Assembly (NCBI RefSeq): GCF_024385575.1
Contig: NZ_JANFMV010000001.1
Location: 2,013,681-2,077,680 of the forward strand
Direction: 5' to 3'
Source of the DNA: Rhizobium sp. NRK18
GTDB lineage: Bacteria; Pseudomonadota; Alphaproteobacteria; Rhizobiales; Rhizobiaceae
DNA: 64,000 bases
The number at the start of each line of letters is the position of its first letter. The first letter of the stretch is position 1. Under the pieces are notes generated by a model. The model saw nothing but the letters and a program-made list of their open reading frames with translations, ran no database searches and was not told where the DNA came from. Below, one piece after another: positions 11,319 to 23,068 of the stretch. The translations under genes were made by a program, and so were the position numbers.

Positions 11319-12071
11319 ATGCTTGAAATCAAGAACCTGCACGCACGCATCGCCGAAGACGGCACCGAAATCATCCGCGGCCTGAACCTGACGGTCAAGG
11401 CTGGCGAAGTGGCCGCCATTATGGGCCCGAACGGCTCCGGCAAGTCGACGCTGTCCTACATCCTTTCGGGCCGCGAAGACTATGAAGTCACCGATGGCGA
11501 CATTCTCTACAACGGCGAGAGCATTCTCGAACTCGACCCGGCCGAACGCGCCGCCAAGGGTATCTTCCTCGCCTTCCAGTATCCGGTCGAAATTCCCGGT
11601 GTCGCCACCATGCAGTTCCTGAAGGTGGCAATGAACGAGCAGCGCAAGGCGCGCGGCGAAGAGGAACTTTCGACGCCGGACTTCATGCGCCGCGTCAAGG
11701 AAGCTTCGGCAGAGCTCAAGATCGCGCCGGAAATGCTGCGCCGTCCGCTGAACGTCGGTTTCTCCGGCGGTGAGAAGAAGCGTGCTGAAATCCTGCAGAT
11801 GGCTCTGCTTGAGCCGAAGCTCTGCGTGCTGGACGAAACCGATTCCGGTCTCGACATCGACGCCCTGAAGATCGTCGCCGACGGCGTCAACGCACTGCGT
11901 TCGCCCGACCGCGCCGTGATCGTCATCACCCACTACCAGCGCCTGCTCGACTACATCGTGCCGGACACCGTCCACGTTCTCTACAAGGGGCAGATCATCA
12001 AGTCCGGCGACAAGACGCTGGCCCACGATCTGGAAGCCAACGGCTACGCCGACATCATTGAGGCGGCCTGA
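11319..12071 (+). CDS. sufC: SufC ABC-type ATPase
   Basis: 250-residue soluble ABC ATPase that powers rearrangement of SufBCD during cluster assembly. Walker A GPNGSGKST begins near residue 36, the signature is FSGGEKKRAEI near 148, and Walker B LCVLDETDSGLD near 169, with the Asp-Glu variant (DET) usual in SufC. The spacing between sufB, the small gene, sufC and sufD is consistent with one transcript. AGG lies 8 bp before the ATG. Confidence 0.97.
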   Translation: MLEIKNLHARIAEDGTEIIRGLNLTVKAGEVAAIMGPNGSGKSTLSYILSGREDYEVTDGDILYNGESILELDPAERAAKGIFLAFQYPVEIPGVATMQFLKVAMNEQRKARGEEELSTPDFMRRVKEASAELKIAPEMLRRPLNVGFSGGEKKRAEILQMALLEPKLCVLDETDSGLDIDALKIVADGVNALRSPDRAVIVITHYQRLLDYIVPDTVHVLYKGQIIKSGDKTLAHDLEANGYADIIEAA

Positions 12072-12104
12072 GGCCCGAGCGGAAACGGTACAAGGATTTT
12101 GATC

Positions 12105-13382
12105 ATGAACATGCAAGCTCAGACCAGGCTGACGGCCGCCGAAACGGCGCTGATCGAAGCCTATGGCGGTCTGTTCGGCCAGCTGCCGGGCGACGGCGCG
12201 GTGACGTCGACGCGTGACCGGCTGATGCACGAGCTGAAGCTGGCCGGTCTGCCGACCCGCCGGATCGAGGCCTGGCATTATACCGACCTGAAGACGCTGC
12301 TGAAGTCCGTCCCGGCAAGTGCCGGCGACGAAAGTGCTGCCGTGGCCGCGCCGCTGGTCGCCGGAGCCTCGGTGCAGGCGATCGTTCAGGGCAAGGCCGC
12401 ACTCGACGGTGCGATCGACGGCGTGGCCATCAAGGCCTATGCCGCGGCGCTGGCAAGCGGCTCGGCCGCCGAAGCGCTTTCCGTCTCTGACGCAGATGAC
12501 GCGATTGGCCGGATCAATGGTGCTTTCGTCCGTGACGGACTGATCGTCGACGTCGCAGCCGGTGCGGAAGTCGATCAGCCGATCGAGCTGCAGTCGGTGC
12601 ATGCCGGCGGCCAGGTTCACGGCCGGATCGCCGCGACCTTTGGTGCCGGCGCCAAGGCGACCGTTGTAGAGCGTCACATCTCGGCCGATGGAGCGTCTGC
12701 GGCCCTCGTGTCATCGGTCAGTGACATCAAGCTCGAAGACGGCGCCGAGGTCACCTGGATCATCGTCCAGGCGCAGGGCGCTGACGACACCCATCTCGGC
12801 CAGATCAACATAGATCTCGGCAAGGATTCCAAGCTGTTTCTGTTCGTGCTGAATGTGGGCGGCAAGCTCGTGCGCCAGGAAATCCATGGCGTGACGACCG
12901 GCGAGGGCGCCGACCTGAAGCTGCGCGGCGTCAACCTGCTCGGCGATGCCACCCATACGGACGTGACGCTGACGCTCGGTCATGACCTGCCGAACACGAC
13001 CTCGACGGAAGTCATCCGCAACGTGGTGTTCGACAATGCTCGCGGCGTTTTCCAGGGCCAGATCCGCGTTGCGCCGGATGCGCAGAAGACCGATGCCCGC
13101 ATGGCCTGCAACACGCTGCTCATGTCGGATGACGGCGAGTTTTCGGTCAAGCCGGAGCTCGAGATCTTCGCCGACGACGTGCAGTGCGCACATGGCGCCA
13201 CCGTTGCCGACATCGACCACACGCATCTCTTCTACCTCATGGCCCGCGGCATCTCCGAAGCGAAGGCGCGCGGCCTGCTGATCAAGGCGTTCGTCGCCGA
13301 GATCGTCGAGGAACTGGAAGACGAGGCCATCGTCGAGGCGCTGGAAGGCGTCATCGACAGCTGGCTGGAACAGCGGGCCTGA
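12105..13382 (+). CDS. sufD: SufD subunit of SufBCD
   Basis: About 425 residues, homologous to SufB in its C-terminal beta-helix. Recognisable blocks are RRIEAWHYTDLK near the N-terminus and DDVQCAHGATVADID followed by FYLMARGI near the C-terminus, holding the conserved His/Cys used at the SufB-SufD interface. SufD supports iron acquisition for the nascent cluster. AAGGA lies 8 bp before the ATG at 12105; an in-frame TTG two codons earlier is less likely. Confidence 0.96.
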   Translation: MNMQAQTRLTAAETALIEAYGGLFGQLPGDGAVTSTRDRLMHELKLAGLPTRRIEAWHYTDLKTLLKSVPASAGDESAAVAAPLVAGASVQAIVQGKAALDGAIDGVAIKAYAAALASGSAAEALSVSDADDAIGRINGAFVRDGLIVDVAAGAEVDQPIELQSVHAGGQVHGRIAATFGAGAKATVVERHISADGASAALVSSVSDIKLEDGAEVTWIIVQAQGADDTHLGQINIDLGKDSKLFLFVLNVGGKLVRQEIHGVTTGEGADLKLRGVNLLGDATHTDVTLTLGHDLPNTTSTEVIRNVVFDNARGVFQGQIRVAPDAQKTDARMACNTLLMSDDGEFSVKPELEIFADDVQCAHGATVADIDHTHLFYLMARGISEAKARGLLIKAFVAEIVEELEDEAIVEALEGVIDSWLEQRA

Positions 13383-13398
13383 GGAAGCGATAAGCAGG

Positions 13399-14643
13399 AT
13401 GGACCAGATGGCACCCATGAGCGGACCTTACGACGTCGAGGCGATCCGGAAGGATTTTCCGATCCTCTCTAAGACGGTCTACGGCAAGCCGCTGGTCTAT
13501 CTCGACAACGGCGCATCGGCCCAGAAGCCGAAAGTCGTGATCGACGCGATCTCGCACGCCTATTCGGACGAATATGCGAACGTGCACCGCGGGCTGCATT
13601 TTCTCTCCAATGCCGCGACCGACGCCTATGAGGCGGCGCGCGAAAAGGTGCGCCGCTTCCTGAATGCCTCATCGGTCGACGAGATCGTTTTCACCAAGTC
13701 CTCGACGGAAGCGATCAACACCGTCGCCTATGGCTATGGCATGCCGAATATCGGCGAAGGCGACGAGATCGTCATCTCGATCATGGAACACCATTCCAAC
13801 ATCGTGCCGTGGCATTTCATCCGCGAGCGACAGGGCGCCAGGCTCGTCTGGGTGCCGGTGGATGAAGCGGGCGCCTTCCATATCGAGGATTTCGAGAAGT
13901 CGCTGACGGAGAAGACCAAGCTCGTCGCGATCACCCACATGTCCAATGCACTGGGAACCATCGTTCCGGTCAAGGAAATCTGCCGCATCGCCCATGAGCG
14001 CGGCATTCCGGTTCTGATCGACGGCTCGCAGGGCGCCGTCCACATGCCGGTCGACGTTCGCGATATCGATTGCGACTGGTATGTGATGACCGGCCACAAG
14101 CTTTACGGTCCGTCGGGCATCGGCGTGCTCTATGGCAAGAAGGAGCGGCTTGCCGCCATGCGGCCGTTCCAGGGCGGCGGCGAGATGATCCTCGACGTCT
14201 CGGAAGGTGCCGTGAGCTACAACGAGCCGCCGCACCGTTTCGAGGCCGGAACGCCGCCGATCGTGCAGGCGATCGGTCTCGGCTATGCGCTCGATTACAT
14301 GGAATCGATCGGCCGTGCGTCGATCGCCGCGCATGAGGCCGATCTGGCCGCCTACGCACAGAGCCAGCTGTCGGCGATCAACTCGCTGAAAATATTTGGC
14401 ACGGCGCCGGACAAGGGCGGAATATTCTCCTTTGAGCTCGAAGGCATTCACGCCCATGATGTGTCGATGGTGATCGACCGGCGGGGCGTCGCCGTTCGCG
14501 CCGGCACCCATTGTGCCCAGCCCTTGCTGAAGCGCTTCGGCGTGACATCCACTTGCCGGGCCTCGTTTGGCCTCTACAATACAAGGGCGGAGGTCGACGC
14601 GCTGGCCGAGGCGCTCGAATATGCCCGCAATTTCTTCGCCTGA
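13399..14643 (+). CDS. sufS: SufS-type cysteine desulfurase
   Basis: 414-residue PLP enzyme of group II (SufS/CsdA). Blocks are KPLVYLDNGASAQKP, NVHRGLHFLS, the PLP lysine K234 in MTGHKLYGPSG and the catalytic C372 in AGTHCAQPLL, set in the short rigid loop of SufS. It supplies persulfide sulfur to SufB. No SufE is encoded in this window, so any partner lies elsewhere or is replaced. This is the second, different-class desulfurase of the operon. Confidence 0.96.
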   Translation: MDQMAPMSGPYDVEAIRKDFPILSKTVYGKPLVYLDNGASAQKPKVVIDAISHAYSDEYANVHRGLHFLSNAATDAYEAAREKVRRFLNASSVDEIVFTKSSTEAINTVAYGYGMPNIGEGDEIVISIMEHHSNIVPWHFIRERQGARLVWVPVDEAGAFHIEDFEKSLTEKTKLVAITHMSNALGTIVPVKEICRIAHERGIPVLIDGSQGAVHMPVDVRDIDCDWYVMTGHKLYGPSGIGVLYGKKERLAAMRPFQGGGEMILDVSEGAVSYNEPPHRFEAGTPPIVQAIGLGYALDYMESIGRASIAAHEADLAAYAQSQLSAINSLKIFGTAPDKGGIFSFELEGIHAHDVSMVIDRRGVAVRAGTHCAQPLLKRFGVTSTCRASFGLYNTRAEVDALAEALEYARNFFA

Positions 14644-14653
14644 GGTGATGTTG

Positions 14654-15034
14654 ATGAGTGAGACCGGAACGGAAGAAAAATGGGATGCCCGCGACGGCAT
14701 CGTGACCTCGACGATCCCTTCGGAGGAGATCGCCAGGCTGTCCGATGACATAATCGCGGCGCTGAAGACGGTCTATGATCCGGAAATCCCGGCCGACATC
14801 TTCGAACTCGGGCTGATCTACAAGGTCGACATCGAAGATGACCGCATGGTCAAGATCGTCATGACGCTGACGGCGCCCGGCTGCCCGGTCGCCGGCGAAA
14901 TGCCCGGCTGGGTGGAAAACGCCGTTGGCGCCGTCGAAGGCGTTTCGGGCGTTGAAGTGGAAATGACGTTCGATCCGCCGTGGTCGCCGGACCGCATGTC
15001 GGAAGAGGCGCAGGTCGCGCTCGGCTGGTATTGA
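14654..15034 (+). CDS. DUF59/MIP18-family Fe-S assembly protein in suf operon
   Basis: 126 residues of the MIP18 (DUF59) family commonly named SUF system Fe-S cluster assembly protein; called sufX in some Agrobacterium work. The core YDPEIPADIFELGLIY and MTLTAPGCPVAGEMP contains the conserved Asp-Pro-Glu and Cys. Family members act in Fe-S maturation or trafficking to targets. GAGG lies 8 bp before the ATG at 14654, so the upstream in-frame ATG at 14648 is not preferred. It overlaps no neighbour and sits 10 bp after the sufS stop. Confidence 0.93.
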   Translation: MSETGTEEKWDARDGIVTSTIPSEEIARLSDDIIAALKTVYDPEIPADIFELGLIYKVDIEDDRMVKIVMTLTAPGCPVAGEMPGWVENAVGAVEGVSGVEVEMTFDPPWSPDRMSEEAQVALGWY

Positions 15035-15110
15035 TCCACCGCCGGCCGACGCCTACATCTTGAAACGGAAGCACCGGGCCTTGAACCCGGTCGTGGAAGG
15101 AGCAGACAGA

Positions 15111-15497
15111 ATGGCATTCGAAGTCATCACCCTGACCGATGCGGCAGCCGACCGTGTGAACGCGATCGTCGGCAACAGCGGCCCCGACGCCAAGGGCATC
15201 CGCGTTTCCATCAAGAAGGGCGGCTGTGCCGGGATGGAGTATTCGGTTGATCTCGTGCGCGAGCCCGATCCGAAGGACGACAAGGTCAGCCGCAACGGCG
15301 CCAGCGTCTGGATCGATCCGTCTGCCGTCCTCTACCTGCTCGGCACCGAGATGGACTATGAAGTCACGACGCTCCGCTCCGGATTCACCTTCCGCAACCC
15401 CAACCAGAGGTCCGCCTGCGGCTGCGGCGAATCCGTCGAACTGAAGGCCGCCGACCTCGCCGAACTGGCACGCCAGCGGGAAGGGGCCGGGGCTTAA
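15111..15497 (+). CDS. sufA: SufA/IscA A-type Fe-S carrier
   Basis: 128-residue A-type carrier (HesB/IscA family) that receives clusters from SufBCD and passes them to apoproteins. The three ligand cysteines are present: one in KKGGCAGMEY and two in SACGCGES. AAGGAG lies 8 bp before the ATG at 15111; the frame extends upstream but without family similarity. Last gene of the suf operon; no obvious terminator follows. Confidence 0.96.
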   Translation: MAFEVITLTDAAADRVNAIVGNSGPDAKGIRVSIKKGGCAGMEYSVDLVREPDPKDDKVSRNGASVWIDPSAVLYLLGTEMDYEVTTLRSGFTFRNPNQRSACGCGESVELKAADLAELARQREGAGA

Positions 15498-15567
15498 TCC
15501 CGGCTATTCTGCTGCATGCCATTGGTGCAACGGTTGCCCTCTGTAACCGCAGGACGACGGAACGGCT

Positions 15568-16335
15568 GTGAACCTGGAACGAAAACTTCGCCGCCTGCTA
15601 AGCAGCCTGACACGGCATGTGTTTCGCCTCGTTATTTTCACCCAGCGTCACCGGGAACCGCGAGTTGCGTTTGAGCGCACATGGTTCCTTCTCCTCAAGA
15701 CAAGGCCGTTTCTCTGGGCATTGAGAAACGGGTATTATGCTCAGCGCGGGTCCTGTATCCGGACGGACCTGATGGGCATGTACTGCGATTTTGCCCCAGG
15801 ATTGTACGCGTCGGTCAAGACCGTCGTTCCTGCGGAGCTGATTTCGCTTCTCGCCGGCGGCGGACCTCTTGCCGTCATGGATTTCCATCAACGGCATACC
15901 GGCGTGACCAAGTGCCTTTGTTCTCTGGGCATTGAGCATTATCGGCTGGTCGCAAACGTGCCGCAGATGGAGCAGAAAGTGCGCTCTCTGGGATTCGATT
16001 TGTCCGTGGTTCATTTCGTGGAACGATCTGTCGCCAGCCTCGCTCAACTGAGGACACTCGCACTGCAGCGCAATGTTGTCTGCTGCTCGGTCGATTTCAA
16101 GTCGAGCGGCAAGTACGAGTATCTCAGCCCCGCAATGGTGGTTGTGATGGAACGAATTTCGATCCCGGTCGTCTTTTGCAAGACCCATGTCACGGAGGAT
16201 GGGGTAATTCATCTCAACTACATGATGTGCCCCAATGGTCAGGATGCGGAGCAATCCCTGGCCTCGGCAATCCGCTTTTTCAATTCCACCCCGGGGGACA
16301 GGCGGAGTTTCACGATATCAAAATTCCAGAGGTGA
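15568..16335 (+). CDS. Orphan protein with acyltransferase-like pattern (paralogue A)
   Basis: 255 residues starting at GTG, with GGAA 5 bp upstream. I recognise no named family. It is clearly paralogous to the protein encoded at 17926-18753: they share MGMY, the block DFHQ-x-H-x-GVTK (here D105-K115), EHYR, CCS-x-DFK (C172-K178), IPVVF-x-K-x-HV and a GDRRS end. The order of these blocks resembles the LPLAT fold of LpxL/HtrB late acyltransferases (HxGxxE block, then a second half near ApvvpvF, then a terminal Arg-rich block), but the catalytic acid of HX4(D/E) is Lys here (H110...K115). Membrane binding through a basic amphipathic N-terminus (RKLRRLLSSL) is plausible. It converges on the ACP gene. 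Confidence 0.7.
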   Translation: MNLERKLRRLLSSLTRHVFRLVIFTQRHREPRVAFERTWFLLLKTRPFLWALRNGYYAQRGSCIRTDLMGMYCDFAPGLYASVKTVVPAELISLLAGGGPLAVMDFHQRHTGVTKCLCSLGIEHYRLVANVPQMEQKVRSLGFDLSVVHFVERSVASLAQLRTLALQRNVVCCSVDFKSSGKYEYLSPAMVVVMERISIPVVFCKTHVTEDGVIHLNYMMCPNGQDAEQSLASAIRFFNSTPGDRRSFTISKFQR

Positions 16336-16346
16336 CAGCCTGCTGT

Positions 16347-16571
16347 CTATGAACTCAGCAATTCATGAAATTGGCTGATATCCTTGTCCTTGTCGATCTT
16401 GTTGACGTCTATGGTGACGTTGAATTCTTCTTCAACCAACATGATGAACTCCACAAGTTCCAGGGAGTCCATTCCTGAGGATTTCAGCGGCTTGGAAATG
16501 TCCATGCGTATCTCCGACGCATTGAGATAGGTCTGCAGAAACGAGTCGAATTCACTCTTGGTGGCGGTCAC
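16347..16571 (-). CDS. Acyl carrier protein
   Basis: 74-residue stand-alone carrier protein with the phosphopantetheine site S36 in SGMDSLELVEF and acidic helices II/III (VEEEFNVTIDVNKIDKDKD). It is distinct from housekeeping AcpP, which is not normally encoded here. Its ATG overlaps the P450 stop codon by 4 bp (ATGA), so the two are translated together and the carrier is probably the substrate-bearing partner of the P450. G+C in 16381-16500 is 55 of 120 bases (46%), far below the surrounding suf genes. A GACAGC-CT-GCTGTC hairpin (16334-16347) covers its 3' end. Confidence 0.9.
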   Translation of the reverse strand: MTATKSEFDSFLQTYLNASEIRMDISKPLKSSGMDSLELVEFIMLVEEEFNVTIDVNKIDKDKDISQFHELLSS

Positions 16572-17650
16572 GTTGCACCTTTGAATTGCAGGAAAACCGA
16601 TGGGAGCATTTCAGGTCTGGGCAAGTTGCCCCAGTTGATGTTTTCGTGGGCTGACTGAACGGCCGTGATCCAGTGGCTCGCAAGCTGGAGAGACAGAGCC
16701 TGGCCGGCGCAAATATGTTTCCCCGCTCCGAACACCAGGCTCCTTCCTGACTTGGTGGCGGCGTAATCGACCGTCCACGGAAGCATCAGAATAATCTGGT
16801 CGCCGGGGAGAATTTCGATGTCTCCGATTTTCGTCCCGGCAACGGCAATCCGGCTGATGTAATTGACCGGCGCCGATCTGGCGAACATCTGGCGGGGACC
16901 GAGGGATCTTATCTGGCTGGCTCTTTCGTCAGTCGGTAGCGACGCAAGCCAGAGACTGAATGCCGACAGCGTGCCGATGAGCGGGTCGCGCCCTTGGAGA
17001 ACGTAGCTCAGGAGAAGTGGGGTTATGTCCTCTTTCCCGGTCCGGGCTATTTCCCGCACGAGGTTTTTGACCTGTATTTCCTTCTCCTTGAGCTGCGACC
17101 GGGAATGGAAGAATTCCATTATGCTTGAAGCGCTCCCGCTCCAGGTGTCCGGCCTCAGATCTTCGCCCAAATGATGTCGAATGATCAACGCGATTGCCCC
17201 GTCAACATAATCTCCAGCGAGGTATTGAAGGGACAGCTTCTCCGGCTTTGCAGATGCCGTCGCAAATATCTGTTGCGCGAGATCGGACAGAAGGGGAGCG
17301 ACTGCTGCCTCCGCTTCTGTCAGGGCTGCCATGAACGTCTGACGCGGTACCGAATGTTCTTTACCGTCCTTCTGCATCGGATTTTGATTCAGAAAATGCT
17401 CGACGATCGAAATGGATGCCTCTTCAGACTTCAATACCTGGGCAATTGCACCGGCTATACGCGGCTGGTGGAAGGCGTGACTGGTCAAGACGGCGCGGCA
17501 TAACCGTTCACTGCGAATGACGATGATGCGTTCGTTGCCGCCTGCAAAGACGGCATGTTCTTCTGATCCGTCTTGAATTTTGTCTGTGACAATCGGTGGC
17601 CGAGCGGCAATGGCCATATTAATGAATTTATATGCGTCCAATGAAATCAT
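16568..17650 (-). CDS. Divergent cytochrome P450 lacking EXXR and acid-alcohol pair
   Basis: 360 residues, about 40 shorter than typical bacterial P450s. The haem-binding loop FGAGKHICAG is intact (ligand C314), and the propionate-binding C-helix motif DGKEHSVPR (H99, R103) is present. The K-helix EXXR is missing: the segment before PVNYISRIA reads RQMFARSA. The I-helix AGxET motif is replaced by LQGRDPLIG (R221, P223), recalling the Arg-Pro pair of CYP152 fatty-acid peroxygenases. Coupling to an ACP suggests a carrier-bound acyl or aminoacyl substrate, as with P450 BioI. No ferredoxin or reductase is nearby. Real oxygenase activity is uncertain. Confidence 0.85.
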   Translation of the reverse strand: MISLDAYKFINMAIAARPPIVTDKIQDGSEEHAVFAGGNERIIVIRSERLCRAVLTSHAFHQPRIAGAIAQVLKSEEASISIVEHFLNQNPMQKDGKEHSVPRQTFMAALTEAEAAVAPLLSDLAQQIFATASAKPEKLSLQYLAGDYVDGAIALIIRHHLGEDLRPDTWSGSASSIMEFFHSRSQLKEKEIQVKNLVREIARTGKEDITPLLLSYVLQGRDPLIGTLSAFSLWLASLPTDERASQIRSLGPRQMFARSAPVNYISRIAVAGTKIGDIEILPGDQIILMLPWTVDYAATKSGRSLVFGAGKHICAGQALSLQLASHWITAVQSAHENINWGNLPRPEMLPSVFLQFKGAT

Positions 17651-17743
17651 CAGATGCTATTCCTGTCACGAAAGAAAGAAGCAGACGGTTTCGGCGCCGG
17701 TCGAAATCTTCGAACGCAGATATTCAATATTAAAAGGATTAAG

Positions 17744-17773
17744 ATATTAAAGCATAAAATTTGGGTCAGCCAA
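17744..17773 (-). promoter_or_regulatory. Candidate promoter of P450-ACP operon
   Basis: On the minus strand TTGGCT (17768-17773) and TAATAT (17744-17749) are spaced by 18 bp, within a very AT-rich stretch (15 G+C in 60 bases at 17701-17760). The rest of the 275-bp gap 17651-17925 holds a small palindrome GGGTA-GA-TACCC (17787-17798) and no gene. Confidence 0.35.
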
Positions 17774-17925
17774 TGGGACCATTATTGGGTAGATACCCGA
17801 TCTAATCGCCATGCCTTCCGCCGAACTTGTGTTGCTTGAGCCGCTGATCATGGGCGGATCACAGGGGAGGGCACGGTCAGGGGTGGAGGGAACGTCCCAC
17901 TCCTGCAGGCGGCGCCGATGCGCCT

Positions 17926-18753
17926 TCATCTGAAGTCGGAGTCGAGAAAATGCGCCGGCGGCGGGTTGGAGATGCTTGACCGCTTGTTGCGCTTTTGCTT
18001 GCGATATTTCGCAACGCTCATGGATCGTCTGTCGCCGGCTGCCGTATTGAAGAATTCGATCATCGCCTCCGCAGCTGCAACCGCATCGTCGATCTGCATG
18101 ACCGCAGAATGGAGCAGGTGCATCCGCCCATCTTCATCGACATGAGACTTGAGAAAGACGACGGGTATGGCGTTCAGGCGGGCAACCTCCAAGACTGCGG
18201 GGCTGACGAATTTGTATTCGTCTTGCCATTTGAAATCGATAGAACAGCAAATTACCCGCTTGTTCCTTGCCGCGCTCCTGAGAAAGACGAGGCTGCCGGC
18301 GTTCCTTCGTACCGAATGAATGAGGGTTTCATCAAGGCCGATGCTGCGGGCTTTGGACCGCACATAGTCGGGGTCGGCCACGACCCTGTAATGTTCCACG
18401 CCCGCCTCGCACAGGCTTTTGGTGACGCCTGGATGTCCCTGGTGAAAGTCCACGATCAACAGAGGTCGATTTGCCCTCAGGATTTCCTCAATGGTCGGCG
18501 AGGACATGCTCCTGGCCTGACCATAGAGATGGGGCGCGTACCTCGAGTACATGCCCATTATCTGGGTCTGCAGTGTGCTTTGTCTGTCGGTGAACAGGCT
18601 GTGGCGAAGACAGAACTTGAACAGCTCGAATTTCTGGAGGGTTTTCCATGTTCTTTGAAACCCTTCCTCATCCGCGGACCCGGAATGCTGCCTGACGACG
18701 GCATTAAACAGAAGGCGTGCGAAACTGTTCGAAAGCCGCCGCAAATTCCGCAT
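17926..18753 (-). CDS. Orphan protein with acyltransferase-like pattern (paralogue B)
   Basis: 275 residues from the ATG at 18753; the frame stays open to an ATG at 18858, but the shorter form aligns with paralogue A (MGMY at residue 66 versus 69) and the longer would start 4 bp after a tRNA. Shared blocks: LLIVDFHQGHPGVTK (H107, K112), GVEHYRVVAD, CCSIDFKW, IPVVFLKSHV, FFNTAAGDRRS. The pattern suggests a divergent LPLAT-like fold with the catalytic acid replaced by Lys. The last 25 residues are a basic tail (KYRKQKRNKRSS) missing from paralogue A. GAGG lies 5 bp before an in-frame TTG three codons upstream of the ATG, an alternative start. It lies upstream of P450-ACP on the same strand. Confidence 0.7.
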   Translation of the reverse strand: MRNLRRLSNSFARLLFNAVVRQHSGSADEEGFQRTWKTLQKFELFKFCLRHSLFTDRQSTLQTQIMGMYSRYAPHLYGQARSMSSPTIEEILRANRPLLIVDFHQGHPGVTKSLCEAGVEHYRVVADPDYVRSKARSIGLDETLIHSVRRNAGSLVFLRSAARNKRVICCSIDFKWQDEYKFVSPAVLEVARLNAIPVVFLKSHVDEDGRMHLLHSAVMQIDDAVAAAEAMIEFFNTAAGDRRSMSVAKYRKQKRNKRSSISNPPPAHFLDSDFR

Positions 18754-18862
18754 TCCAAACAAGACGACCTCGTGACCGCTCGAGATATGACGACGTGGAT
18801 GCTGAACGAGTTTCGGCGACGATCCCCTCATCGCCGGACATCTCAAGCAGAAATTCATGAAA

Positions 18863-18938
18863 TGGTGAGCGCGCAGGGATTCGAACCCTGGACCTACTGA
18901 TTAAAAGTCAGTTGCTCTACCGGCTGAGCTACGCGCTC
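18863..18938 (-). tRNA. tRNA-Lys (anticodon TTT)
   Basis: 76 nt on the minus strand with an encoded CCA. Acceptor GAGCGCG pairs with CGCGCTC; D-arm GCTCAGCCGGTAGAGC; anticodon loop CTTTTAA; T-arm CAGGGTTCGAATCCCTG. Its 3' end faces the low-GC P450/ACP patch, the usual orientation for a tRNA integration site, though I see no duplicated 3' end nearby. Confidence 0.97.
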
Positions 18939-19175
18939 CCAAGGCGAAGGATTCTGGCCCCCGCTGGAATGGCGCGGAACATATTGGCGAGGTGGTATAT
19001 GGTCAACCCATAAAATTGCATTTTGCCTGGCGAAAATCAAAGGTCATTTTGGGCCTCTTGCCTGTGGCAATAAGTTGACTGGCATGTGATCGTCCGACGC
19101 TTTATTGAGGCCTTTGACGTGGCCTGTTTGAAGCGGGCCGGATTGTGAATGCCTGAACTGCCGGAGCCGGTTACC

Positions 19176-19922
19176 GTGTCGATTGCTGAAATTTCGCTCC
19201 TGAGTGCGCTCCTCGCCGGCGCTCTGTCCTTCCTGTCGCCCTGCGTGCTGCCGCTGGTGCCGCCGTATCTCTGCTACATGGCAGGCGTTTCGGTCGAGGA
19301 TTTTCGCGGCGGTGCGAACGGGACCGCATCGGCCACGCGCCGCACCGTGATGCTGTCGGCGCTGTTCTTCACGCTCGGATTTGCGACGGTCTTCGTTGCG
19401 CTCGGGGCAGGGGCGTCGACCATCGGCCAGCTGTTGCGCCAGCATCTCGATGTCCTCGCCAAGATCGGCGGTCTGATCATCGTCGTGATGGGTCTGAATT
19501 TCCTCGGTGTCTTCCGGCTCGGTTTCCTGGCGCGTGAGGCACGGTTCCAGGGCGGTGGCAAGCCGGCGACGCTGTCGGGCGCCTATATCATGGGACTGGC
19601 GTTCGCCTTCGGCTGGACGCCCTGCATTGGGCCGGTTCTCGGTGCCATCCTCGGGGTCGCCGCCTCGCGCGACACCGTCGGCGACGGTGCCTTCCTGCTT
19701 GCCGTCTATTCGCTTGGCCTTGCCATTCCGTTCTGGATTGCAGCCAGCTTCTCGGGCGCCTTCATGCGGTTCCTGTCGCGTTTCCGCAAGCATCTCGGCC
19801 TCGTCGAGAAGGTCATGGGCGCGCTCCTGGTGCTCACGGGCCTTGCCTTCATGCTCGGATATATCAGCGATCTGGCGATCTGGTTCCAATCGACCTTTCC
19901 AATCCTGTCGCAAATCGGCTAA
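19176..19922 (+). CDS. ccdA: CcdA-family thiol-disulfide membrane protein
   Basis: 248-residue inner membrane protein with six predicted helices, the CcdA/DsbD transmembrane type that carries reducing equivalents from cytoplasmic thioredoxin to periplasmic thiols for cytochrome c maturation. The paired redox cysteines are in SFLSPCVLPLVPPYL and AFGWTPCIGPVLGA. I prefer GTG at 19176 (GGAG 10 bp upstream) because relatives start at SIAEISLLSALLAG; an ATG nine codons earlier is possible. No other cytochrome c genes are adjacent. Confidence 0.9.
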   Translation: MSIAEISLLSALLAGALSFLSPCVLPLVPPYLCYMAGVSVEDFRGGANGTASATRRTVMLSALFFTLGFATVFVALGAGASTIGQLLRQHLDVLAKIGGLIIVVMGLNFLGVFRLGFLAREARFQGGGKPATLSGAYIMGLAFAFGWTPCIGPVLGAILGVAASRDTVGDGAFLLAVYSLGLAIPFWIAASFSGAFMRFLSRFRKHLGLVEKVMGALLVLTGLAFMLGYISDLAIWFQSTFPILSQIG

Positions 19923-19966
19923 CTGCTTACCGTTGATCGCGGAATGATTGCAGGCAAGACGAGCGC

Positions 19967-20929
19967 ATGGGGAATATTGTCGGACTACTGGCGCCTTTTT
20001 TCGGGTTGATCATCGTCGGCTTCGTGGCGGCCCGGATCACCAGGCAGGATCAGGCTGCGCTCGGCTGGATGAACACGTTCATCATCTATGCCGCGCTGCC
20101 AGCGCTGTTCTTCAAGCTGGTTTCGGGCACACCGATCGAAGAGCTGACGCGTTTCGACTTCATCCTGACCGATCTCGGCGCGACCTATCTGATCTTCATC
20201 CTGGTCTTCGCCGTCGGCTATATCATCCGGCGCAATTCACTGGCCGACTGCACCATCCAGTCGTTTGCCGGGGCTTACGGCAATATCGGCTACATGGGGC
20301 CCGGGATCGCGCTGCTGGCATTCGGCGAAAAGGCGGCCGTTCCCGTGGCGCTGATCGTCTGCTTTGAAAATGCGCTGCATTTCGTCGTGGCGCCGGCGAT
20401 GATGGCGATGGCCGGCGATGACAAGCGCGGTCCGCTGCAACTGGTCGTGGCGATCGCGCAGAAGGTTTTCCTGCACCCGTTCATCCTGTCGGCTGCCGCA
20501 GGCTTCGTCGTTGCGGCCTCCGGTCTGCAGGTGCCGGCCGCGTTCCAGAATTTCGTCAATTATCTCGCCCAGGCGGCCGCACCCTGCGCGCTGTTTGCCA
20601 TGGGCGTGACCTTGGCGCTGAGGCCGGTCAAGCGCGTGCCTGCGGAAATCTACTATATCGTGCCGGCCAAGCTGATCCTGCATCCGATCGTCGTCTATCT
20701 GGCACTCGCCAGCGTCGGCGGTTTCGACCCGGCGTGGATCTATTCGGCGGTTCTTCTGGCCGCCCTGCCGACGGCAACCAATGTCTTCGTCATCGGCCAG
20801 CAATATGGGGTCTGGCAGGAGCGGGCGTCGGCGACGGTATTGATCACTACGACGCTCTCGATCGTCAGCGTCACGGCGCTGCTCTACGTGATCGACAGCG
20901 GCCTGTTACCGCCCGAGCTTTTCCCGTAA
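19967..20929 (+). CDS. AEC family (auxin efflux carrier-like) transporter
   Basis: 320-residue membrane protein with about ten helices. N-terminal block FFGLIIVGFVAARITRQ and the central AGAYGNIGYMGPGIAL are typical of the bacterial AEC/permease group related to malonate and auxin carriers. The substrate cannot be predicted. It follows ccdA by 44 bp on the same strand and its last 24 bp overlap the convergent UbiH-family gene tail to tail. Confidence 0.88.
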   Translation: MGNIVGLLAPFFGLIIVGFVAARITRQDQAALGWMNTFIIYAALPALFFKLVSGTPIEELTRFDFILTDLGATYLIFILVFAVGYIIRRNSLADCTIQSFAGAYGNIGYMGPGIALLAFGEKAAVPVALIVCFENALHFVVAPAMMAMAGDDKRGPLQLVVAIAQKVFLHPFILSAAAGFVVAASGLQVPAAFQNFVNYLAQAAAPCALFAMGVTLALRPVKRVPAEIYYIVPAKLILHPIVVYLALASVGGFDPAWIYSAVLLAALPTATNVFVIGQQYGVWQERASATVLITTTLSIVSVTALLYVIDSGLLPPELFP

Positions 20930-22111
20930 CGCTCTCGGAAGCGAGAATATCCCGCCGCCCGGCTGTACGCCTTCGCGCATCACGAGGTGGCGCAGCGGCG
21001 AAACCGTGTCAAGCACGTGCAGTCCGGCCGCGCGCAGCATCTGTACCGGCAGGAAACCGGAGAGAAGAGTGCGATTGAGGAGATCGACGCTGGCGGTCCG
21101 GCTCATGATGTCGGCGCGGCGCTTCCAGTCGAAACGGGTACCGGCGTCGGCGGTAACCGGCTTGTTGCCAGACGGTGCCAGAGCGTCGGTCAGCGCGATC
21201 ACATCACGCAGGCTGAGGTTGAGGCCCTGGGCGCCGATCGGCGGAAAGACGTGGGAGGCTTCGCCGACAAGCGCGATGCGGCCCTTGCCGAATCGGTCGG
21301 CCATCAGGCCCGAGAGCGGCCAGGCCTGGACGCCGTCTTCGACGTACACGCGTCCGAGCAGCGATTGCATGCGGTCTTCGACCTTGCGGCTGAGTGCATC
21401 CAGCGGAAGAGCCATCAGATCGTCCGCCTGCTCGGGCTTCACCACCCAGACAAGGCTCGATCGCTTGCCGCCGGGCAGGGGAACCTGCGTGAATGGTCCC
21501 GTTTCGGTGTGAAATTCCGTCGAGATGTTTTCATGCGGCCGATCGTGGGCGAAATTCAGCACGATTGCCGATTGCGGGTAGGACCATGTGCGGCTGCCTA
21601 TGCCGGCGCTGGTGCGAACCAGCGAATTGCGGCCGTCGGCGCCGACGACGAAGTCGGCCACGAACGCACTTCCGTCGTCAAGGGTGACGGCCACGGCCGC
21701 ATCGGTGATGTCGATCGCCTGCGCCTTCGCCGTCAGCCGCTCGATATTGGGCTCGGCGGCGATCGCCGTTTCAAGGATGGCGTTGAGCGCGCTGTTGGGG
21801 AAATTGTACCCGAATGCCTCAAGATCGATGTCGCCGGCACGGAAGGAAACGACCGGTGCGCGCAGGAGACGGTCCGTGCCGTCGATGATCCGCATGTGCT
21901 TGAGACCGGCGGACTGCGCCTTCAGGTCCTGCCAGATGCCGAGACGGTCGATGAAGGCAATGGACTGGTCCATGAGCGCCGTGGTGCGCCTGTCATCCCG
22001 GTTCGCCGGCGGCGCAACGAACGCCACCTTGCGGCCCGCCCTGGCCAACGCCAGCGCTGCCAGCGAACCCGCCGGGCCGGCTCCGATAACACCGATTTCA
22101 TAATCGCTCAT
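20906..22111 (-). CDS. UbiH/UbiF/VisC-family FAD monooxygenase
   Basis: 401-residue flavoprotein hydroxylase. The N-terminal Rossmann motif is GAGPAGSLAALALARAG, the DG motif is FVVGADGRNSLVR, and the FAD-ribityl motif GRIALVGEASHVFPPIGAQGLN has Glu in place of the usual Asp (GEASH for GDAAH). Members hydroxylate ring positions of ubiquinone precursors; which position cannot be told. ATG at 22111 chosen over a GTG three codons upstream. Single gene, divergent from pcs. Confidence 0.88.
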   Translation of the reverse strand: MSDYEIGVIGAGPAGSLAALALARAGRKVAFVAPPANRDDRRTTALMDQSIAFIDRLGIWQDLKAQSAGLKHMRIIDGTDRLLRAPVVSFRAGDIDLEAFGYNFPNSALNAILETAIAAEPNIERLTAKAQAIDITDAAVAVTLDDGSAFVADFVVGADGRNSLVRTSAGIGSRTWSYPQSAIVLNFAHDRPHENISTEFHTETGPFTQVPLPGGKRSSLVWVVKPEQADDLMALPLDALSRKVEDRMQSLLGRVYVEDGVQAWPLSGLMADRFGKGRIALVGEASHVFPPIGAQGLNLSLRDVIALTDALAPSGNKPVTADAGTRFDWKRRADIMSRTASVDLLNRTLLSGFLPVQMLRAAGLHVLDTVSPLRHLVMREGVQPGGGIFSLPRALREKLGR

Positions 22112-22336
22112 GACCGCCACCTGTCACTTTCGTCTCTTCCGCATATTGCCTCTATTTAGCGCCGGCCGGTGCGCAAATCCATGGGGCGGAACGGCGCAGC
22201 CGTCAGATTGTATCCCCTTGGCCCGATTCATTTTTGTGCTGTACGTTACAGGCAAATACAGTATCAGGACTCACATGTGTGGACTTCGGGGCCCTGTCCT
22301 CGAAGTGCCGGCCGAAAAAGGGTGGGAACGGCGAAC

Positions 22337-23068
22337 ATGAAGATCTTCAACTACAGGCGGGTGCCCTATGCGGAAATCCGGGCGTTCTCCGTCCATATCC
22401 TGACGGCGTCCGGCTCGTTTCTGGCCTTTCTCGGCGTCGTGGCGGCGGCGGAACTGCGCTTCATCGACATGTTCTGGTGGCTCGGGCTGGCGCTCGCTGT
22501 CGACGGCATCGACGGACCGATCGCCCGCAAGCTGAAGGTGAAGGAGGTCCTGCCGAACTGGTCGGGCACGATGCTGGACAACGTCATCGACTACGTCACC
22601 TATGTGCTGCTGCCGGCCTTCGCGCTCTACCAGAAGCACATGATCGGCGAACCCTGGTCCTTCGTGGCAGCCGGCGCGATCGTCATGTCGAGCGCAATCT
22701 ATTACGCCGACATGGGCATGAAGACCGAGGAGAATTTCTTCTCCGGCTTCCCGGTCGTGTGGAACATGGTCATCTTTTCGCTGTTCGTGGTGGATGCCAG
22801 CGAGAATGCCGCCATGGTGGTGATCTTCGTCTCGGTGATCCTGACCTTCCTGCCGATCAACTTCCTGCATCCCGTTCGGGTCGAGCGGCTCCGGCCGCTC
22901 AATCTCGGCATATTCCTGCTCTGGTGCCTGTTGGGCGGCATATCGCTTCTCAGGCATTTCGAAATGGCATCCTGGATGGTGTGGTTGTTCATCGCTTGTG
23001 GTATCTACCTCTACGTGATCGGAGCGGTACTGCAATTCTTTCCGAATCTCGGGAAAAAGTCAGTCTAG
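22337..23068 (+). CDS. pcs: Phosphatidylcholine synthase
   Basis: 243 residues, eight or so membrane helices. Pcs makes phosphatidylcholine directly from choline and CDP-diacylglycerol in the inner membrane; it is characteristic of rhizobia and other host-associated bacteria. The CDP-alcohol phosphotransferase motif is present in its Pcs form: DGIDGPIAR, then 8 residues, G, then MLDNVIDY. Length agrees with known rhizobial Pcs. The frame is open 56 codons upstream but family similarity begins at MKIFNYRRVPYAEIR. Confidence 0.95.
   Translation: MKIFNYRRVPYAEIRAFSVHILTASGSFLAFLGVVAAAELRFIDMFWWLGLALAVDGIDGPIARKLKVKEVLPNWSGTMLDNVIDYVTYVLLPAFALYQKHMIGEPWSFVAAGAIVMSSAIYYADMGMKTEENFFSGFPVVWNMVIFSLFVVDASENAAMVVIFVSVILTFLPINFLHPVRVERLRPLNLGIFLLWCLLGGISLLRHFEMASWMVWLFIACGIYLYVIGAVLQFFPNLGKKSV

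What the first reader, a model, noticed from the sequence alone, without database searches (positions are those of the whole stretch)
15568..18753. Candidate new system: ACP, divergent P450 and two paralogous acyltransferase-like proteins
Seen: four genes between sufA and tRNA-Lys: paralogue A on plus; paralogue B, P450 and ACP on minus, with P450 and ACP overlapping by 4 bp. Known: P450s such as BioI act on ACP-bound acyl chains, and LpxL-type enzymes use acyl-ACP donors. Inference: the set could load, oxidise and transfer or hydrolyse an unusual acyl group, giving a modified lipid or signal. I recall no described pathway with this composition.
Basis: partly seen in the sequence, partly recalled or inferred. 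Interest (0 to 1): 0.85.

Follow-up and report, generated by a model that had tools for sequence, protein, structure and literature searches.

The report
ACP-coupled P450 clade lacking ExxR
A rare bacterial gene module pairs an unusual stripped-down cytochrome P450 with its own acyl carrier protein and an enzyme of acyltransferase or hydrolase type, which suggests an undescribed way of oxidising a carrier-bound acyl group and then handing it on.

Summary
The four genes are real and where stated. Orphans A and B (40% identical) have the LPLAT fold (PatA/LpxM) and keep an invariant His and Asp, as PatA's catalytic pair would need, but lack HX4D/E. The P450 (360 aa) keeps the Cys-heme loop and lacks the K-helix ExxR and the I-helix Thr. 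Such P450s are rare. I read 12 loci in 11 genomes: all 12 have an ACP beside the P450 (a stricter, independent ACP model finds 10), and in the 10 junctions checked the ACP frame overlaps the P450 stop. None of 53 other P450 loci fetched with the same kind of profile has one (ExxR confirmed in 50). The third gene varies: LPLAT-like in 6 loci, hydrolase-like in 5 (mostly by eye), NeuD-like acetyltransferase in 1. Best reading: the ACP carries an acyl group, the P450 oxidises it there, and the third enzyme transfers or releases it. Substrate, redox partner, loading enzyme and acceptor are unknown. Nine searches of an open-access paper library listed no such module.

The parts
15568..16335 (+). 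LPLAT-fold acyltransferase-like protein A, tail to tail with the ACP (11 bases between stops); same place and orientation as the single copy in L004, L005 and L007
   Evidence: ORF; 40% identical to B; H104 and D173 (B numbering) kept; gene order. Fold inferred from B, not modelled itself
16347..16571 (-). dedicated acyl carrier protein with phosphopantetheine Ser in GMDSLEL
   Evidence: PF00550 E 4e-9; alignment A4; GTGA overlap with the P450 stop
16568..17650 (-). cytochrome P450-fold protein without K-helix ExxR, with RDP in place of the I-helix acid-Thr pair, with FGxGxHxCxG kept
17926..18753 (-). LPLAT-fold acyltransferase-like protein B, same strand as and upstream of the P450 (275 bases between); inner ATG start, open frame to 18858
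18863..18938 (-). tRNA-Lys(TTT), border of the module; not part of it
   Evidence: tRNA-Lys next to ccdA in 5 of 6 relatives read

Best explanation
A small biosynthetic module for an acyl group held on a dedicated ACP. (1) The ACP carries an acyl chain as a phosphopantetheine thioester. (2) The co-translated P450, a heme-thiolate enzyme reduced to a minimal core, docks the ACP and oxidises the tethered chain, much as BioI does. Because the acid-alcohol pair of the I-helix is replaced (RDP in the window), proton delivery probably comes from the substrate, water or peroxide rather than from Thr. (3) The LPLAT-fold enzyme takes the product off the ACP with a His(104)-Asp(173) pair and passes it to an acceptor, giving a modified lipid or acyl conjugate; in sister modules a hydrolase-like protein takes this place. 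Shown by computation: parts, folds, coupling, partner exchange. Inferred: all chemistry, substrate, acceptor and order of steps. The role of two acyltransferases (two acceptors, or one loading and one unloading) is a guess.
For: Coupling: an ACP lies beside the P450 in 11 of 11 ExxR-less loci and 0 of 53 other P450 loci (own ACP model, 9 of the 11 in its training set); a generic model made from three unrelated carriers finds 10 of 11 and 0 of 53. A 12th locus, L117, came later (own model 4.8e-14, not in training; generic model missed it). The ACP frame overlaps the P450 stop in 10 of 10 junctions printed (start codons are my choice, L004's is ambiguous). The acyltransferase profile, without use of the P450, led to L073, which turned out to be P450-ACP-acyltransferase. 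Fold: PatA, LpxM, PlsC and GPAT top the list for B; H104 and D173 are invariant in 9 proteins, and PatA uses His126 with Glu200 outside HX4D, whose Asp seems structural (PMC4792965, passages). P450: H99 and C314 invariant in 13. Partner exchange: acyltransferase against hydrolase needs 3 changes on the P450 tree (11 rows labelled), as expected if both act on the same carrier-bound product. Constraint between L005 and L007 (NG86): P450 dN 0.16, dS 0.53; ACP 0.22, 0.55; acyltransferase 0.19, 0.52.
Against: No loading enzyme, ferredoxin or reductase was recognised by eye among the ORFs overlapping 12000-22500. Loss of ExxR and of the I-helix Thr could mean loss of monooxygenase activity. The acyltransferases lack HX4D/E and have no sequence-level match to any characterised acyltransferase. 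The genome of L006 (a 2.6 Mb MAG) shows no LPLAT-like relative. The hydrolase-like partners are called mostly by eye; Pfam gives sub-threshold hydrolase hits for two of three tested. Fold likeness does not prove function; the P450 model has pLDDT 77 and matches many P450s, not BioI alone.
Confidence: 0.6

Rival explanations
1. The P450-fold protein is not a catalyst but a helper that binds the ACP and the acyltransferase or hydrolase, like the P450-derived activators of glycosyltransferases.
For: ExxR and the I-helix Thr are absent in all 13 aligned; one clade member has a weak hit to TIGR04515, P450-derived glycosyltransferase activator (L079, E 2.9e-4, 20.3 bits against a cut-off of 343); strict genetic coupling to small partners suits a scaffold.
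Against: The Cys loop residues F307, G308, G310, H312, C314, G316 and H99 are invariant in 13 of 13, and L082 and L117 keep the Cys; a helper without heme would not need them. The same L079 protein scores slightly better with the Cyp119 model (1.6e-4, also far below its cut-off).
Confidence: 0.17
2. The acyltransferase-like proteins load the ACP from the cell's own acyl-ACP or acyl-CoA pool, or are inactive binding proteins, and the oxidised acyl group leaves by another route.
For: HX4D/E is missing in all 9; no other loading enzyme was recognised near the window module (by eye); there are two copies in the window.
Against: His and a block-3-like Asp are invariant, as PatA needs. In sister modules the slot is filled by hydrolase-like proteins, which fit release better than loading.
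Confidence: 0.18
3. A BioI-type route that cleaves acyl-ACP to pimeloyl-ACP for biotin.
For: BioI is the top Foldseek match and can cleave acyl-ACP to pimeloyl-ACP (PMC7645780, passages).
Against: No biotin genes were recognised by eye near the window module or in the listed stretches of L004-L007; the alpha-proteobacteria named in PMC7645780 use BioZ and lack BioI; biotin synthesis needs no LPLAT-type enzyme (recalled); sister modules neighbour a sulfotransferase or an ATP-grasp ligase. I did not search the genome for biotin genes.
Confidence: 0.04
4. A decaying foreign island or a chance neighbourhood with no shared function.
For: Lower GC3 than its neighbours; rare: 0 of 397 other Pseudomonadota genomes drawn matched either profile (only 5-6 candidates a genome were scored).
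Against: Open frames, full-length close relatives, overlapping genes, constraint in a sister pair, 12 of 12 loci with ACP.
Confidence: 0.03

Closest known systems
Cytochrome P450 BioI (CYP107H1, Bacillus subtilis; family number recalled) with acyl-ACP
   Same: A P450 acting on ACP-bound acyl chains; its complexes with acyl-ACP (3ejb, 3ejd, 3eje) lead the Foldseek list.
   Different: Here the ACP is encoded next to the P450, ExxR is absent, and a transferase or hydrolase-like gene is attached; no biotin genes recognised nearby. Identity in the alignment is only 16-17%.
CYP157 family of Streptomyces
   Same: P450s that break the ExxR rule (PMC3599690, passages).
   Different: CYP157 changes the Arg to Trp (EVLW, EQSLW) and is linked to conservons; here neither residue is kept and the partner is an ACP.
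PatA / LpxL-LpxM / HtrB acyltransferases (LPLAT fold)
   Different: No HX4D/E, no family hit by sequence, and beside a P450-ACP pair in all 7 cases read.
P450-derived glycosyltransferase activators (TIGR04515)
   Same: Degenerate P450 fold, genetic coupling to a transferase.
   Different: Cys loop kept here; partner is an ACP; only one weak hit, in a sister protein.
P450s acting on carrier-bound amino acids in NRPS pathways (recalled, e.g. NovI type)
   Same: P450 plus small carrier protein.
   Different: No adenylation enzyme recognised in the window module; other P450 clade. Recalled, not tested.

Membership tests
Cytochrome P450 superfamily | P450 fold | tested here: met
Cytochrome P450 superfamily | Cys heme-ligand loop FxxGxHxCxG | tested here: met
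   Invariant in 13 of 13; L082 has Y for F
Cytochrome P450 superfamily | K-helix ExxR | tested here: not met
   Absent at the K-helix position in all 13 of A6, in L081 and L082 and, by eye, in L117. A bare E..R pattern does occur elsewhere in the window protein (EIAR) and in L007 (EAER), off the K-helix column. CYP157 is a known exception, so this marks an aberrant P450 and does not exclude membership
Cytochrome P450 superfamily | Pfam PF00067 at its cut-off | tested here: not met
   12.6 bits against 22.8 for the window; L078 just meets it at 22.9
BioI | acyl-ACP as substrate | not testable with these tools
   Needs protein; the ACP neighbour is only circumstantial
BioI | neighbouring biotin genes | tested here: inconclusive
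   None recognised by eye among neighbours; no search for biotin genes was run
LPLAT / HtrB-LpxL-PatA | fold | tested here: met
LPLAT / HtrB-LpxL-PatA | HX4D/E motif | tested here: not met
   HQGHPG, HQRHTG, HDGFSF, HELHLS and similar in the 9 proteins of A7
LPLAT / HtrB-LpxL-PatA | catalytic His with a block-3 acid, as in PatA | tested here: inconclusive
   H104 and D173 invariant in 9 of 9; spacing fits, but no superposition of side chains was possible
LPLAT / HtrB-LpxL-PatA | sequence family match | tested here: not met
   No Pfam or NCBIfam hit for A and B, none for sister proteins tested; no PDB acyltransferase by profile at E up to 10
P450-derived glycosyltransferase activator | loss of the heme Cys (recalled as typical) | tested here: not met
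   Cys invariant; family hit only for L079, far below its cut-off; none for the window protein
Type II acyl carrier protein | PF00550 with DSL Ser | tested here: met
   37 bits against 20.8; GMDSLEL

The most novel reading that the evidence does not exclude
A separate clade of P450s has shed ExxR and the usual I-helix Thr and has become obligately coupled to a dedicated ACP, so that catalysis occurs only on a tethered chain and the off-loading enzyme is swapped like a plug-in (LPLAT, alpha/beta-hydrolase, perhaps hexapeptide transferase) to make different lipids, conjugates or signals. If so, ACP docking may replace part of what ExxR does in other P450s, and the chemistry may be unlike ordinary hydroxylation.
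Probability: 0.4. Interest if true: 0.85.

Novelty: new variant of a known kind. Interest (0 to 1): 0.7.

Why it matters
ExxR is one of the two motifs by which P450s are found in genomes (PMC3990721, passages), so members of this clade can be left as hypothetical proteins, as the PAMB 3182 one is; two of the seven database relatives do bear the name cytochrome P450. A minimal P450 with its own carrier offers a compact system for asking what ExxR is for and how P450s recognise carrier-bound acyl chains, and points to an undescribed class of oxidised acyl products in Pseudomonadota.

Tried and rejected
Biotin (BioI) role: set aside on context, without a search for biotin genes. Plasmids: no match by tblastn for the P450 (E up to 1e-5) or B (1e-3). 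Viruses: 26 stretches fitted the patterns, none encodes a relative. Sequence link of the acyltransferases to solved structures: none (best hits, E 0.86 and 0.89, are unrelated). A possible tRNA-site island: in 6 relatives the stretches read (about 9-10 kb upstream of ccdA) hold no match to the suf proteins (E up to 1e-8); tRNA-Lys was matched beside ccdA in 5 of the 6; no att repeat was sought. Promoter and terminator patterns are near the shuffled expectation (2 against 1.5; 6 against 3.7). Papers: 9 searches answered, some on side questions (PatA, CYP157, BioI, ERR triad); none of the listings (titles, starts of abstracts) shows a P450-ACP-acyltransferase module of this kind. Of four papers I saw passages, of none the whole text. 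The library is open-access only, so absence there is weak.

Limits. The own ACP model was trained on 9 of the 11 loci it then finds; on the window's genome it finds 3 of 5 PF00550 loci, one of them its own, hence the generic model, which misses L009 and L117 (10 of 12). Of the 53 control loci, ExxR was confirmed by pattern in 50; L015, L029 and L030 were not classified because the Cys pattern did not match. L118 (ExxR, no ACP) and L119 (not classified, no ACP) are outside the 53. In one search, 140 of 394 genomes matched at E up to 1e-3, but only the 30 best loci were fetched and classified (2 ExxR-less besides the window's); the weaker matches were not looked at. Genome searches with an alignment scored only 5-10 candidates a genome as a rule, and A5 holds no member of the second clade, so rarity may be overstated. 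Protein searches scored only the candidates that share most words. The tree is the 'quick' method with long branches (L082, L078, L081); 24 of 43 control P450s of 380-460 aa were kept after thinning; one origin of the clade is suggested, not proven. L117 is not in the tree. In the count of partner changes PAMB 3182 is labelled acyltransferase on the strength of one contig length shared by its three proteins, its neighbourhood was not read, and L006 is unlabelled. P0001, P0002 and P0004-P0008 have no readable DNA context. L005 and L073 lie in one genome (G799).
Full report
WHAT IS THERE. Four genes lie between the suf genes and tRNA-Lys: A (15568-16335, +), ACP (16347-16571, -), P450-like (16568-17650, -) and B (17926-18753, -). 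The P450 stop and the ACP start share GTGA. A ends 11 bases from the end of the ACP, tail to tail. GC3 is 0.62-0.69 in the four genes and 0.79-0.81 in five neighbours, so the module probably came from elsewhere. Only the ACP passes a Pfam cut-off (PF00550); A and B hit nothing in Pfam or NCBIfam. The names suf, ccdA and the like are read from the translations, not from a search.

RELATIVES. Protein search gave 7 P450 relatives and 3, then 4, relatives of the orphans. A scan of genome contigs gave L004 Silicimonas, L005 Betaproteobacteria SCN2, L006 Azoarcus and L007 Hydrogenophilaceae. Genome searches added G284 and G290 (140 of 394 genomes matched at E up to 1e-3, nearly all weakly; the 30 best loci were fetched), G915 (3 of 117 genomes), G1218 and G932 (26 of 385 genomes matched, all but these and the window's by P450s with ExxR), and G1401 (4 of 196). 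Among 398 Pseudomonadota genomes only the window's own matched, for the P450 (A5, E up to 1e-12) and for the orphans (A7, E up to 1e-5); only a few candidates a genome were scored. The orphan profile alone led to a second module in the genome of L005 (L073/L077), again P450-ACP-orphan.

COUPLING TEST. P450 loci fetched with the family's own P450 profiles (A1, A6) serve as control. With the ACP model made of the module ACPs, 11 of 11 ExxR-less loci and 0 of 53 other loci have an ACP within 1500 bases; with a generic model from three unrelated carriers of the window's genome, 10 of 11 and 0 of 53. ExxR was seen in 50 of the 53; 3 could not be classified. L117 was found afterwards, also with an ACP (own model 4.8e-14; the generic model missed it), making 12 of 12 loci in 11 genomes, or 10 of 12 by the generic model alone. 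The ACP frame overlaps the P450 stop in 10 of 10 junctions printed, by 4 or 8 bases in nine if the nearest start codon is taken (L004's start is ambiguous). In L082 the order is ACP then P450; L081 was not checked because the frame is broken there. On a quick tree 15 ExxR-less P450s stand on one side of a branch against 24 others (SH-aLRT 99.9), with long branches as a caveat.

THE THIRD GENE. LPLAT-like in the window (two), L004, L005, L007, L077 and L082; in L004, L005, L007 and the window (A) it stands tail to tail with the ACP. Alpha/beta-hydrolase-like in L078, L079, L080 and L081, and a thioesterase-like ORF facing away from the P450 in L117. These are called by eye from GxSxG-like motifs; Pfam gives sub-threshold hydrolase hits for two of three tested. 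L006 has a NeuD/PglB-family acetyltransferase (TIGR03570) overlapping the P450 start, and no LPLAT-like relative was found in its genome. Acyltransferase against hydrolase needs 3 changes on the P450 tree (11 rows labelled). Added neighbours: an ATP-grasp ligase akin to LdmS in L007 and L005 (7r8p, E 5e-22 for the two-row profile; NF047900 E 1e-30 but below its cut-off for L007), an Stf0 sulfotransferase in L078 and a KAS III in L079. Between L005 and L007 the module genes are under constraint (NG86 dN and dS: P450 0.16, 0.53; ACP 0.22, 0.55; acyltransferase 0.19, 0.52).

HOW IT PROBABLY WORKS. The ACP carries an acyl group; the P450 oxidises it while tethered; the third enzyme transfers (LPLAT) or frees (hydrolase) the product. 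Parts, folds and coupling are computed results; chemistry and products are inference. Open: how the ACP is loaded, which redox partner is used, why the window has two acyltransferases, what the acceptor is. The main rival is a P450-fold helper without catalysis; the kept Cys loop and His speak against it.

KNOWN OR NEW. The kinds are known (ACP-reading P450 such as BioI; LPLAT fold; ExxR exceptions). The combination and the clade do not appear in the listings of the 9 paper searches answered (named under Tried and rejected). I therefore call it a new variant of a known kind, with a bolder reading stated apart.

Noticed in passing
L005:5055-7111 and L007:12272-14328: Two ORFs follow the module; the second resembles the ATP-grasp ligase LdmS, the first only looks like ATP-grasp by eye (best PDB hit E 0.086). 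They may add amino acids to the product.
   Followed up: partly
L078:7079-7888: Stf0-type sulfotransferase directly upstream of the P450-ACP-hydrolase set.
   Followed up: partly
L079:9177-10331: KAS III-like gene divergent from the P450-ACP-hydrolase set in a Rhizobiaceae genome of the window's family.
   Followed up: partly
L004:15149-16654: ORF that by eye looks like an acyl-CoA synthetase or AMP ligase, about 4 kb from the P450-ACP pair, a conceivable loading enzyme.
   Followed up: no
L007:4208-9694 and L005:25-2484: Very long, nearly identical ORF next to the module in two betaproteobacterial records, which by eye resembles site-specific recombinases; may explain movement of the module.
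   Followed up: no
window 11319-15497 and 18863-19922: tRNA-Lys and ccdA stay neighbours in 5 of 6 relatives read, without suf matches in the stretches read (about 9-10 kb upstream of ccdA); the suf to tRNA-Lys junction is not shared with those six.
   Followed up: partly
L082: Divergent module with order ACP, P450, LPLAT-like, and a P450 whose I-helix acid is replaced (LGVRPF).
   Followed up: partly
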